A stretch of 64,000 nt of DNA from Pseudanabaena sp. (GTDB lineage Bacteria; Cyanobacteriota; Cyanobacteriia; Pseudanabaenales; Pseudanabaenaceae). The stretch lies in NCBI GenBank assembly GCA_003249035.1, contig QBMK01000005.1:76308-140307 (forward strand), written 5' to 3'. Shown here one piece after another: positions 4,011 through 8,192 of the stretch. Position numbers and translations under genes: made by a program. Numbering within the stretch: the first letter of the stretch is position 1; each line of letters begins with the position of its first letter. The notes below the pieces were generated by a model. It saw only the letters and a list, made by a program, of their open reading frames with translations, made no database searches and was not told where the DNA came from.

Positions 4011-4655
4011 TTGGTAATGAGTATAGAGGAGCAATTAAAGCAGCTAGTGCTAGAAACTTGCCAGCACCCGCATGGAAGTGTGAAGCGGCAAAAAGGATTA
4101 ACTGCGATTGTTCGGCTCATCAATCGCTCGCATAAACTCTGGAGAGATGCATCTGCCTATTACGAAGATGCCTTGCAGCAAACTTGGTTGTATTTCTGTC
4201 GCAATCTCTGCGAGGCATTTACAGCAAGGGCTGCCTACGATCCTGAACAAAGTAGCATCACGACTTGGATGAACGCCTATCTCAAACGTCGCCTACAAGA
4301 TATGTATACTGAAACTCAAACTCAAAAGAATAGAACTGTGTCAGAAATACAGGAAAAGAACACAGGGTTAACTGCTACCGATCGCCTCGTTGCTCCCCCC
4401 CCGCCTTCTTCTTTACTAGAGCGAATTCGAGAATGGGTCGAGCAAGATTCCACCAAAAAATTGCGAAAAATTCATATTCGCGATCGCCCAGATGTTAACG
4501 CGCAAGTTTTGATTTGCAGGCGCTTACCCCCTGAATCGAGTTGGCAAACCCTCTCGCTGGAGTTCGGTCTTCCGATTTCTACACTTAGCAGCTTCTATCA
4601 ACGTAGTTGTCTTCCAGTTTTAAAGCAATTTTATGACTTAGACGTAGTAGGCTAA
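4011..4655 (+). CDS. sigma-70 family RNA polymerase sigma factor-like protein
   Basis: Region-2-like AAYDPEQSSITTWMNAYLKRRLQDMYTE and region-4-like PPESSWQTLSLEFGLPISTLSSFYQR; upstream of DUF1822 and CHAT genes. Confidence 0.7.
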   Translation: MVMSIEEQLKQLVLETCQHPHGSVKRQKGLTAIVRLINRSHKLWRDASAYYEDALQQTWLYFCRNLCEAFTARAAYDPEQSSITTWMNAYLKRRLQDMYTETQTQKNRTVSEIQEKNTGLTATDRLVAPPPPSSLLERIREWVEQDSTKKLRKIHIRDRPDVNAQVLICRRLPPESSWQTLSLEFGLPISTLSSFYQRSCLPVLKQFYDLDVVG

Positions 4656-4663
4656 TTTTTGAG

Positions 4664-5656
4664 ATGAATAAGATAGAAGATTTTGCATTATTCTTACCCA
4701 TTTCTACCGAGCATCGCAGAATTGCACGGGAGTTTATGTCGGAGCAGCCCACAGCAGCCAAAGCCGAGAGTGTCATGGGCAATATACTGGCTGTTCTCGT
4801 CGTCAAAGACTACCTAGAAATGATGGGGATTGTGACGAATATTGCCGAGAGTGACTGCTGGAATCCAGTGATGCGAATATGTGCAAATATAGCTGACTTG
4901 AATATCGAGGGCGTTGGGAAACTGGAATGCCGCTCTCTTAAAACAGGAGAATCGAGCTGTTATATGCCCCCCGAAGTATGGGAAGACCGAATTGGCTATG
5001 CGATTGTGCGAATTGAGGAGGATTTGCGATCGGCATCTCTTTTGGGTATGGTATCTCGGGTCTCAACGGAGACGATCGCAATCGATCGCTTGGAGCCTAT
5101 CGAAAATCTCTGCGTAGCGATTGCAGCTTTGCAAGCATCTGTCCAATCAAATTTGCCCCAAATTAATCATCAGTCAGATATTCAGCTAGAGCGATCGCAA
5201 CCTTTAGTAAGTCTTGGGAATTGGTTGCAAGGAATCTTTGAGGAAGGATGGCAAGAGATAGAGGCCATATTCAGCGAACGCCAAATCCAACCTGCTTGGC
5301 GATCGGCAACGCTGAGATTGAGATATAAATTAAGCGAACAATCGGATGTTTCAGGAACTCGGCGCACCAAGTTTTTAAATCTAGAATCCTTGAGAGTTGC
5401 TTTGGTGGTCACGATCTTAGAAACAGAGAGAGAACATGTTCCATTACATATAGCGGTCTACCCTATAACAGAGGTGTTTTTACCCGAATTCCTCAGTTTA
5501 AAAGTATTGGATAATTTTGGTAATTGCTTTTTAGAAGCAAGCGCAAGGAGACAAGATAATTACGTTCAGCATAATTTAGGTGGCGATCGAGGAGAGCATT
5601 TCAGCATTCAGATATCTCTTGGGGCAACAATTCTCACAGAGAACTTTACGATCTAA
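4664..5656 (+). CDS. DUF1822 family protein
   Basis: 330 aa; layout and motifs (SLGNWLQGIFEEGWQEIEAIF) of cyanobacterial DUF1822, in its usual context between a sigma-like gene and a CHAT gene. Confidence 0.75.
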   Translation: MNKIEDFALFLPISTEHRRIAREFMSEQPTAAKAESVMGNILAVLVVKDYLEMMGIVTNIAESDCWNPVMRICANIADLNIEGVGKLECRSLKTGESSCYMPPEVWEDRIGYAIVRIEEDLRSASLLGMVSRVSTETIAIDRLEPIENLCVAIAALQASVQSNLPQINHQSDIQLERSQPLVSLGNWLQGIFEEGWQEIEAIFSERQIQPAWRSATLRLRYKLSEQSDVSGTRRTKFLNLESLRVALVVTILETEREHVPLHIAVYPITEVFLPEFLSLKVLDNFGNCFLEASARRQDNYVQHNLGGDRGEHFSIQISLGATILTENFTI

Positions 5657-5678
5657 AAAATGTTTTCATCTCGATAAT

Positions 5679-8192
5679 ATGGGCAAACTCGTCATTCTTA
5701 AATTTGGTCAAGGTAGTTTCGAACAAGGGTTTCCGATCTCAATTCAGATTGGTGAGGAAGGGGCACGACCGTCCTTAGAGGCTTCGGCATCGTTACCCCC
5801 TGCCAGCCTCGATCGCACCTATCAGGAATGGCAGCAGAACTATCGAAACATGATTTCGACCCCAAGGTTATCCGCTCCAAGTGCTCAAATTACCAATGTT
5901 TCATTTTTTGAAGATTGCCAAATTAAGTCACTGGAGTTGCGTGATTGTCTAAATCGTTGGCTGCGATCGGATTCATTCTTACCCATCCGCGAACGCATTA
6001 TCGAAAATATTCAACGTAACGATGAAGTGCGTTTTTTGATTCAGACAGAAAATGAAAGTCTTCAGCGGATGCCGTGGCAAATATGCGATCTATTTGCGCG
6101 TTTTCCTTGTGCTGAGGTGGGAATTTGCCCACTTGACTATACGACGATGCCTGCGAATATAGCGCCTATTCGTGTAAGTCCTGCGGCTCAGCCAGTGCGG
6201 ATTTTGGCGATTTTGGGCAGTGATGATGAAATCAATGTGGAAGCAGATCGCATACTATTACAAAAGTTGATCCATGCAGAAGTTACGTTTTTAGTAAAAC
6301 CAAAAAGCCAGCAATTAAGCGATCATCTTTGGCAGCAGCATTGGGATATTTTGTTTTTTGCGGGACACAGCACTAGTCATTTAGAGTGCGGACGTATTTA
6401 CATCAATGATTCTGAAAGTCTTACCATTGAGCAACTTCACTATGCCATCAAAACGGCAGTTGCAAATGGATTGAAGCTAGCTATTTTTAATTCCTGTGAT
6501 GGTTTGGGGCTAGCGCGATCGCTATTCGATCTCGATATTCCCCAAGTCATTGTTATGCGCGAACCAGTTCCCGATCTCGTTGCTCAAGAATTTCTGAAAT
6601 ATCTGCTTGCTGAACTTTCCATTGGACGACCACTTCATCTTGCAGTTCGCAACTCCAGAGAAAAGCTGCAATGGTTAGAAGAGCAGTTCCCCTGTGCAAC
6701 ATGGTTGCCCACTATCTGTCAAAATCCCGATCTGGCTCCATCTTTTTTTAAAATACCATCAACTCAACGCTCAAAGAAATGGCAAAAATGGCAAAAAATT
6801 GCTTTGTTGGTTCTTATTGGTATTGGTTGTGCGATCGTTTCTACAATCTACATTGCAAGAAATTCACAAATAAATCCTAACCTAATTCCTACTTCTCAAA
6901 TTTCTTCAGATGCTCTTACAGAAAGACTTAGTCTCGGTCAAAGATTTTTAATCACCTCAAATCTCAATGTCTATAAAGATCAGGGCGCAAAGGCTTTTTC
7001 TGAAGGGAACTATCCTGTAGCGATCGACAATTTTCAATCTTCATTACGACTAGAGCGGAACGATCCTGAAACATTAATTTATCTCAATAATGCTAAAGCA
7101 GCTACGCAAAAGCACCTTCGTATTGTTGCCAGTGTTCCAATTTCGGGCAATCTCAATATTTCTCAAGAAATTTTAAGAGGTATTGCCCAATCTCAAGATG
7201 AAATCAATCATCGTGGTGGCATTCGGGGCATGATGCTGCAAGTAGAAATTGCCAATGATGAGAACGATCCCGATATTGCCAAGACCTTAGCGAAAGCTTT
7301 TGTAAACGATCGCAAGCTTTTGGGTGTGATTGGACATAATGCTAGCGAAGTAACGATTGCGGCAGCTCCTATTTACCAAAAGGAGAAGTTAGTTGCGATC
7401 TCGCCTACAAGTGGTGCGCAAGAACTTGAAAATTACGGAGATTATGTATTTCGTACTGTTACCAGCAATGTAGTTGATGCTCAAAAGTTAGCAGACTACA
7501 CTGTGAGAATTGCCCAAAAGAAAAGAGTGGGAATGTGTATAGATTCAATTTCTACCTATAGCTATTCACTTGCCTATGAATTTAAGAAGCTGCTTTTGCA
7601 AAAAGGGATTCAAATTAGTGCGATTCCCTGTGATTTTTCTAGCAAATCTTTCAATCCCAATGAGATCATCTCACAGATGTTGAATGAGAATGTTGATACG
7701 CTGTTGATCGTACCCTCTGTTAAACGTCTCTACCAAGGTATCGAAATTGCGAAACTAACCCAAGGCAAAATTCTTCTATTAGGTGGATCGACAACCTATA
7801 CACAAGACCTACTGAAATTAGGTGGCAGTTCCGTAAATGGTATGGTTTTGTCAGTCGTTTGGCATCCTTCAGTTTTTCGCGGCAGTTCTTTTCCTAGTGA
7901 TGCGATCGCACTTTGGGGTGGAAGTGTGAATTGGCGAACTGCAATGTCCTATGATGCAACCCAAGCGATCGCTTCCGGTTTACAGCAAAGCGATTCCCGT
8001 GAGGATCTGCAAAAAACGCTTTCGAGTTCTTCGTTTTCCGCCATTGGTGCTTCAGGAAAAATCCAGTTTCGTAAAACTGGCGATCGCTCCGGACGCGGAA
8101 TCCTAGTTAAGGTTGAGCCAGGAAATCAATCTGGCACAGGTTATGATTTTGTCCCAATTTTAGAACCAATTGATCAACCATCAAAGCAATAA
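5679..8192 (+). CDS. CHAT domain protein fused via a TM helix to a TPR-like plus type-1 periplasmic-binding (ABC substrate-binding-like) domain
   Basis: Start MGKLVILKFGQGSFEQGF preferred to the listed 5580 ATG, which overlaps DUF1822. CHAT His in ILFFAGHSTSH (codon 6366) and Cys in AIFNSCDGLGLA (codon 6495); TM KIALLVLIGIGCAIVSTIYIA; C-terminal half aligns by eye with the 973-2373 product. Confidence 0.85.
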   Translation: MGKLVILKFGQGSFEQGFPISIQIGEEGARPSLEASASLPPASLDRTYQEWQQNYRNMISTPRLSAPSAQITNVSFFEDCQIKSLELRDCLNRWLRSDSFLPIRERIIENIQRNDEVRFLIQTENESLQRMPWQICDLFARFPCAEVGICPLDYTTMPANIAPIRVSPAAQPVRILAILGSDDEINVEADRILLQKLIHAEVTFLVKPKSQQLSDHLWQQHWDILFFAGHSTSHLECGRIYINDSESLTIEQLHYAIKTAVANGLKLAIFNSCDGLGLARSLFDLDIPQVIVMREPVPDLVAQEFLKYLLAELSIGRPLHLAVRNSREKLQWLEEQFPCATWLPTICQNPDLAPSFFKIPSTQRSKKWQKWQKIALLVLIGIGCAIVSTIYIARNSQINPNLIPTSQISSDALTERLSLGQRFLITSNLNVYKDQGAKAFSEGNYPVAIDNFQSSLRLERNDPETLIYLNNAKAATQKHLRIVASVPISGNLNISQEILRGIAQSQDEINHRGGIRGMMLQVEIANDENDPDIAKTLAKAFVNDRKLLGVIGHNASEVTIAAAPIYQKEKLVAISPTSGAQELENYGDYVFRTVTSNVVDAQKLADYTVRIAQKKRVGMCIDSISTYSYSLAYEFKKLLLQKGIQISAIPCDFSSKSFNPNEIISQMLNENVDTLLIVPSVKRLYQGIEIAKLTQGKILLLGGSTTYTQDLLKLGGSSVNGMVLSVVWHPSVFRGSSFPSDAIALWGGSVNWRTAMSYDATQAIASGLQQSDSREDLQKTLSSSSFSAIGASGKIQFRKTGDRSGRGILVKVEPGNQSGTGYDFVPILEPIDQPSKQ

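What the first reader, a model, noticed from the sequence alone, without database searches (positions are those of the whole stretch)
4011..8192. Candidate ligand-gated CHAT protease signalling operon (sigma-like factor, DUF1822, CHAT-TM-receptor)
Seen: three consecutive + strand genes with very short gaps (sigma stop 4655, DUF1822 start 4664, DUF1822 stop 5656, CHAT start 5679). The third encodes a CHAT domain with intact His (AGHS, codon 6366) and Cys (NSCDG, codon 6495), one TM helix (about 6795-6863), then a TPR-like segment and a complete type-1 periplasmic-binding domain. Known: cyanobacterial CHAT proteins often lie beside sigma-like and DUF1822 genes; CHAT domains are caspase-like proteases, as in Craspase/TPR-CHAT. 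Inference: an extracytoplasmic small-molecule receptor is wired directly to a cytosolic protease, with DUF1822 or the sigma-like protein as candidate substrate. I know of no characterised example of this architecture.
Basis: partly seen in the sequence, partly recalled or inferred. Interest (0 to 1): 0.8.

Follow-up and report, generated by a model that had tools for sequence, protein, structure and literature searches.

The report
Cyanobacterial receptor-protease operon with sigma factor
A cyanobacterium carries a three-gene cassette in which a caspase-like protease inside the cell is joined through one membrane helix to a nutrient-binding-protein-like sensor outside it, next to a sigma-factor-like protein and its companion; the cassette type was predicted before, but this sensor version is common, largely mislabelled as a transporter part, and untested.

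Summary
Three + strand genes lie 8 and 22 nt apart: a divergent ECF sigma-like protein (4011/4017-4655), DUF1822 (4664-5656, the genome's only one) and an 837-aa EACC2/CHAT-TM-TPR-SBP protein (5679-8192). The His230/Cys273 dyad is conserved in 80 of 80 relatives. Flanking charges place CHAT inside and the LIVBP-like domain outside. Of 43 CHAT-SBP genes in other cyanobacteria, 36 have DUF1822 beside them, nearly all with the sigma-like gene too. The kind is not unknown: Kaur et al. 2021 predicted 'EACC2-caspase' systems with variable C-terminal receptor domains, an ECF sigma gene and DUF1822. So this is a new variant with a periplasmic-binding-protein ectodomain. New here: (1) about 16 of 42 loci carry two such ectodomains, the window's own second copy being free at 973-2373; (2) DUF1822 is predicted as an alpha/beta domain plus a beta-sandwich, neither TPR nor Csx30-like; (3) the LIVBP residues T102 and E226 are not kept, so the ligand is probably not an ordinary alpha-amino acid. 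Best mechanism: ligand-gated CHAT cleaves or remodels DUF1822 and frees the sigma-like factor, a membrane analogue of Craspase logic. The biochemistry is inferred, not shown.

The parts
4011..4655 (+). divergent ECF sigma-like protein (probable start ATG 4017)
   Evidence: family profile vs own-genome ECF sigma factors hhalign 95.1%, E 3.4e-8; named sigma-70 family in many orthologues
4664..5656 (+). DUF1822 protein; AF2: alpha/beta domain (residues 1-162) plus beta-sandwich (231-330)
   Evidence: Pfam PF08852 E=2e-58; only copy in the genome; model pLDDT 88.7
5679..8192 (+). EACC2-like/CHAT-TM-TPR-SBP receptor protease, 837 aa
5679..6173 (+). N-terminal alpha+beta domain (EACC2-like by position and secondary structure)
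   Evidence: AF2 secondary structure; Kaur et al. description
6195..6722 (+). CHAT caspase-like core
   Evidence: Pfam PF12770 E=3.5e-12; His follows strand 224-228 and Cys follows strand 267-270
6366..6368 (+). catalytic His230 (AGHS)
   Evidence: 80/80 relatives
6495..6497 (+). catalytic Cys273 (NSCDG)
   Evidence: 80/80 relatives
6798..6854 (+). single transmembrane helix
   Evidence: hydropathy 2.59; K/R 5 before, 1 after; N>C in 116 of 154 relatives, N<C in 9
6969..7100 (+). TPR-like helical segment
   Evidence: AF2 helices 431-474; family profile matches designed TPR chains
7113..8156 (+). type-1 periplasmic-binding-protein ectodomain (Peripla_BP_6)
   Evidence: Foldseek 3ip5 E 9e-22, TMt 0.87
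973..2373 (+). free TM-TPR-SBP paralogue without CHAT; candidate co-receptor
   Evidence: 44% identity to the CHAT-SBP C-terminal half; lies inside the CHAT-fused SBP radiation
145..843 (+). PspA/IM30-like coiled-coil protein travelling with the free SBP
   Evidence: PF04012, just under cut-off; pair at 76% identity or more in only 3 of 26 congeners, near CHAT in all three
2515..3780 (+). Na+:dicarboxylate/amino-acid symporter (SDF); linkage to the cassette uncertain
   Evidence: SDF also beside CHAT-SBP in L006
3812..3847 (+). perfect palindrome, 17-bp arms, between symporter and sigma-like gene

Best explanation
The cassette is a one-pass signalling device. A periplasmic type-1 binding domain, probably paired with a second one (here the free TM-TPR-SBP at 973-2373), binds a small molecule or a loaded partner. 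The change passes through the TPR-like stalk and the membrane helix to the cytosolic EACC2-CHAT module, whose Cys-His protease is switched on. It then cleaves or remodels DUF1822, its obligate genetic partner, releasing the divergent ECF sigma-like protein to change transcription. Shown by sequence or model: the parts, the dyad, the topology signal, linkage and co-divergence. Inferred: ligand gating, DUF1822 as substrate or anti-sigma, sigma activity.
For: Domains and dyad. Topology by positive-inside charges, 116 of 154 against 9. Binding-protein fold with LIVBP, Atu2422 and mGluR ectodomains as neighbours. Linkage, 36 of 43 genes. Co-divergence: DUF1822-CHAT Mantel r 0.77, sigma-DUF1822 0.56, sigma-CHAT 0.44, each p about 0.0005, 40 loci. 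The same CHAT chassis carries other periplasmic sensors: a CHASE2-like C-terminus in Nostocales (read from the sequence; CHASE2 is named by Kaur et al.) and PBP_like_2 in Okeania. Two ectodomains per locus. The logic CHAT protease - cleaved anti-sigma - ECF sigma is demonstrated for Craspase (PMC10028731). Kaur et al. proposed sensing by the variable C-terminus and a transcriptional output for these systems.
Against: No biochemistry exists. DUF1822 shows no fold match to a solved protein at E<=0.001 and no Csx30 among the top 50. The sigma-like gene is not next to DUF1822-CHAT in many Nostoc CHASE2-type loci, and the window's own protein is a weak sigma match. 18 of 26 congeners lack a close orthologue of the CHAT. 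The AF2 model has low confidence in the membrane segment (residues 361-405), so it does not prove the domain arrangement. The Mantel correlations do not remove shared species history.
Confidence: 0.5

Rival explanations
1. Same receptor-protease, but DUF1822 is an adaptor that holds the complex, and CHAT cleaves itself (EACC2 release) or other cell proteins, giving a death or defence response as Kaur et al. propose; the sigma-like gene only adds transcriptional control.
For: Autopeptidase activation of the constant caspase domain is the published proposal (PMC8195603); DUF1822 co-varies most tightly with CHAT; patchy distribution in the genus (8 of 26).
Against: No PADLOC defence model matches any of the four proteins tested; a sigma-like neighbour in most CHAT-SBP loci favours a transcriptional output.
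Confidence: 0.27
2. CHAT cleaves the sigma-like protein itself, or DUF1822 is a co-activator, so that signalling switches transcription off rather than on.
For: Sigma-like protein and DUF1822 are co-encoded; the polarity of the response cannot be read from sequence.
Against: Sigma-CHAT co-divergence (0.44) is the weakest of the three pairs.
Confidence: 0.12
3. The gene is essentially a transport substrate-binding protein with a fused CHAT relic, serving nutrient uptake.
For: Database names and fold.
Against: Membrane-anchored, no branched-chain amino-acid permease or ATPase genes among the ORFs of window 1-14000, dyad conserved in 80 of 80, sigma/DUF1822 linkage.
Confidence: 0.03
4. CHAT here is a pseudo-protease used only as a protein-interaction domain.
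For: Weak Pfam score for the CHAT region (48 bits by genome search against about 200 for most other CHATs of the genome).
Against: His230 and Cys273 invariant in 80 relatives and placed after the expected strands.
Confidence: 0.05

Closest known systems
EACC2-caspase systems of Kaur et al. 2021 (PMC8195603)
   Same: Constant N-terminal alpha+beta domain and caspase (CHAT) domain, variable C-terminus including extracellular receptor domains with TM helices, neighbouring ECF sigma and DUF1822 genes
   Different: Their text names CHASE2 and 'several small-molecule-binding domains' but not a periplasmic binding protein; DUF1822, called a TPR protein there, is modelled here as alpha/beta plus beta-sandwich, with a helical insert only in some relatives; the two-ectodomain pattern is not described there
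Craspase / CASP, type III-E CRISPR (Csx29, Csx30, CASP-sigma; PMC10028731)
   Same: Works like it, if the inference is right: CHAT protease, ECF sigma, and a candidate sigma-holding protein in one locus
   Different: Activated by RNA through Cas7-11 there, by an ectodomain here; DUF1822 shows no structural match to Csx30; no Cas genes recognised next to the cassette
HetF (cyanobacterial CHAT protein of cell division and heterocyst development)
   Same: CHAT region alignable (E 3.7e-7)
   Different: 28.8 bits against an equivalog cut-off of 1200; not a HetF
LivJ/LIVBP branched-chain amino-acid binding proteins; mGluR/GABA-B ectodomains
   Same: Fold, and the conserved S79-equivalent serine
   Different: T102 and E226 equivalents not conserved; membrane-anchored and fused to a protease; no transporter genes adjacent

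Membership tests
EACC2-caspase system (Kaur et al. 2021) | N-terminal alpha+beta constant domain followed by a caspase/CHAT domain | tested here: met
   AF2 secondary structure and Pfam CHAT; the authors' own EACC2 profile was not available
EACC2-caspase system (Kaur et al. 2021) | variable C-terminal sensor on the constant module | tested here: met
   relatives carry SBP, tandem SBP, CHASE2-like, PBP_like_2 or helical C-termini
EACC2-caspase system (Kaur et al. 2021) | neighbouring ECF sigma and DUF1822 genes | tested here: met
EACC2-caspase system (Kaur et al. 2021) | autopeptidase activation on stimulus | not testable with these tools
   needs biochemistry
Craspase/CASP (type III-E CRISPR) | Csx30 homologue as anti-sigma substrate | tested here: inconclusive
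   DUF1822 model has no PDB match at E<=0.001; Csx30 not in the top 50
Craspase/CASP (type III-E CRISPR) | Cas7-11/gRAMP partner | not tested
   no Cas gene recognised among ORFs of window 1-14000 by eye; no genome-wide search made
ECF sigma factors | sigma region 2 and region 4 at profile level | tested here: met
   hhalign 95.1%, aligned across both regions; only 3 of 35 orthologues hit Pfam Sigma70_r2, so the family is divergent
HetF | NCBIfam equivalog cut-off | tested here: not met
   28.8 bits against 1200
ABC transporter substrate-binding protein | cognate permease and ATPase genes | tested here: not met
   no branched-chain amino-acid permease/ATPase genes among ORFs of window 1-14000
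Alpha-amino-acid-binding HAAT proteins | LIVBP S79, T102, E226 equivalents | tested here: not met
   S556 kept in 78/80; position 579 is F/T/G/S; position 704 is S/P/D/T

The most novel reading that the evidence does not exclude
A membrane counterpart of Craspase: a two-ectodomain receptor (two type-1 binding domains, like class C GPCR dimers) that gates a caspase-like protease controlling a sigma factor through a new fold of anti-sigma protein, DUF1822.
Probability: 0.28. Interest if true: 0.82.

Novelty: new variant of a known kind. Interest (0 to 1): 0.55.

Why it matters
Prokaryotic caspase-like proteases are common, but few have known triggers or substrates. This locus offers a trigger (a ligand-binding ectodomain that can be made as a soluble protein), a protease with a defined catalytic cysteine, and two candidate targets in one operon. 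If confirmed it would be a single-polypeptide receptor-protease of a kind apparently without a studied example, and would explain why many 'ABC transporter substrate-binding proteins' in cyanobacteria carry a protease.

Tried and rejected
DUF1822 as a Csx30 homologue: structure search found no significant match. DUF1822 as a TPR protein: the model is alpha/beta plus beta-sandwich. PADLOC defence membership: no hits. Amino-acid ligand from the LivJ resemblance or from the neighbouring dicarboxylate symporter: two of three signature residues are missing, and the symporter recurs beside only one of about 40 other CHAT-SBP loci (L006), which chance could give. The two other weak CHAT hits in the genome (C36, C44) encode a CHAT followed by an NTPase-like region, with no SBP or DUF1822 nearby. 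The palindrome at 3812-3847 as an operator private to this system: its second perfect copy lies just past the end of an unrelated gene, so a terminator-like hairpin is as likely.
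Full report
What is there. Window 4011-8192 holds three + strand genes separated by 8 and 22 nt. The first is a 212-214 aa divergent ECF sigma-like protein. On its own it reaches only E=0.0078 with TIGR02937; among orthologues from 35 loci the best reaches 1e-6 with that model, and the family profile aligns with genuine ECF sigma factors of the same genome at 95% probability over both sigma regions (the control DUF1822 profile gives 0.2%). 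The second gene is DUF1822 (E=2e-58), the only one in the genome. The third encodes 837 aa: an alpha+beta N-terminal domain, a CHAT caspase-like core, one membrane helix, a short TPR-like stalk and a complete Peripla_BP_6 domain.

Protease and topology. His230 and Cys273 are identical in 80 of 80 aligned relatives and lie directly after strands 224-228 and 267-270 of the predicted model (mean pLDDT 88.8), which is where the dyad of caspase-like folds sits (general knowledge). Positive charges lie before the membrane helix (5 against 1 here; before exceeds after in 116 of 154 CHAT-SBP proteins, the reverse in 9), which places CHAT in the cytosol and the binding domain in the periplasm. The model itself is unsure in the membrane segment (pLDDT about 44-59) and is not used for topology.

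The sensor. The ectodomain matches branched-chain amino-acid and GABA/alanine binding proteins best, and metabotropic glutamate receptor ectodomains next (Foldseek 3ip5 E 9e-22, TM 0.87 by target length). Of the LIVBP ligand residues, the S79 equivalent is kept (78 of 80), but T102 (position 579: F, T, G, S) and E226 (position 704: S, P, D, T) are not. That LIVBP residues S79, T102 and E226 hold the ligand is my own knowledge, not a tool result. A plain alpha-amino acid is therefore an unlikely ligand; this is an inference from alignment.

Conserved linkage. Of 43 CHAT-SBP genes with enough upstream sequence (the window's own included), 30 have DUF1822 within 3 kb on the same strand, 28 of these also the sigma-like gene, and 6 more have a convergent DUF1822. 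Across 40 non-redundant loci the three proteins co-diverge, most strongly DUF1822 with CHAT (Mantel r 0.77; sigma-DUF1822 0.56; sigma-CHAT 0.44). Shared species history was not removed. In many Nostoc loci the sigma-like gene is not adjacent while DUF1822 is, so DUF1822 is the closer partner of CHAT.

Two ectodomains per locus. The window holds a CHAT-less TM-TPR-SBP at 973-2373, 44% identical to the C-terminal half of the CHAT protein. In the SBP tree it lies inside the radiation of CHAT-fused SBPs (SH-aLRT 81-100 along the path). Elsewhere the second ectodomain is in the same polypeptide (about 1230-aa CHAT-SBP-SBP; N and C copies fall in separate parts of the tree), in a second adjacent CHAT-SBP gene (L002, L004, L023; the two genes fall in different SBP clades), or in a free gene beside the cassette (L006, L017, L029, L045). 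By my count that is about 16 of 42 loci. In the same genus, only 3 of 26 genomes hold the PspA-like/free-SBP pair at 76% identity or more; all three carry the CHAT orthologue (8 of 26 do; hypergeometric p 0.02) and have the pair near it, within about 0.5-5 kb. A more distant free SBP (47-49%) also occurs in CHAT-less congeners, so the coupling is not absolute.

Modular evolution. The nearest CHAT relatives in the genus (57-58% identity) are 604-620 aa proteins without an SBP; they have predicted TM helices and no Pfam domain other than CHAT, while sigma-like and DUF1822 genes lie on the same contig about 2.5-7 kb away in most. Okeania L029 has one CHAT with Peripla_BP_6 and a second CHAT with the unrelated PBP_like_2 fold. 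Exchange of unrelated binding domains on one CHAT chassis supports a sensor role.

Mechanism and rivals. I favour ligand binding outside, protease activation inside, and cleavage or remodelling of DUF1822 with release of the sigma-like protein. The precedent is Craspase, where the CHAT protease Csx29 cleaves Csx30, an inhibitor of the ECF-type CASP-sigma (PMC10028731). Against a direct homology, the DUF1822 model (pLDDT 88.7; alpha/beta domain 1-162, beta-sandwich 231-330) has no significant PDB match. The main rival is the autoproteolytic death or defence scheme of Kaur et al.. No experiment decides between them.

Relation to what is known. Kaur et al. 2021 (PMC8195603) described the constant EACC2-caspase module, the variable C-termini including extracellular CHASE2 with TM helices, and the ECF sigma and DUF1822 neighbours. 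The present cassette meets those features and is filed there as a variant with a periplasmic-binding-protein ectodomain. Searches of the open literature found no paper on this ectodomain or on DUF1822 function; subscription journals and preprints were not covered.

Noticed in passing
window 3812-3847: Perfect palindrome with 17-bp arms about 30 nt after the symporter stop codon; one other perfect core copy in the genome (G000:C57:75754-75785), also just past a gene end. Terminator-like hairpin or TetR-type operator.
   Followed up: partly
window 145-2373; L113 10507-12666; L117 11170-13333: PspA-like plus free TM-TPR-SBP gene pair that sits near CHAT cassettes in three congeners, in varying orientation, like a mobile sub-module.
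   Followed up: yes
L029 15608-17782: CHAT fused to a PstS-type PBP_like_2 domain, a second unrelated binding fold on the CHAT chassis.
   Followed up: partly
L006 6881-8221 and window 2515-3780: SDF dicarboxylate/amino-acid symporter beside a CHAT-SBP cassette in two distant cyanobacteria; could be chance.
   Followed up: partly
L115 6927-8261 (P0180) and P0162, P0175, P0177: Longer DUF1822 proteins (437-480 aa) whose precomputed Pfam list includes a HisKA match; possibly a helical insert miscalled.
   Followed up: no
L110 8455-10377; L111 1729-3513: In sister genomes an M48 peptidase gene lies between DUF1822 and CHAT, and a VWA protein with a weak solute-binding-protein match lies downstream of CHAT.
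   Followed up: no
window 12968-13756: TetR-type regulator whose C-terminus reads into a zinc-ribbon stretch typical of insertion-element proteins, suggesting an insertion-derived fusion.
   Followed up: no
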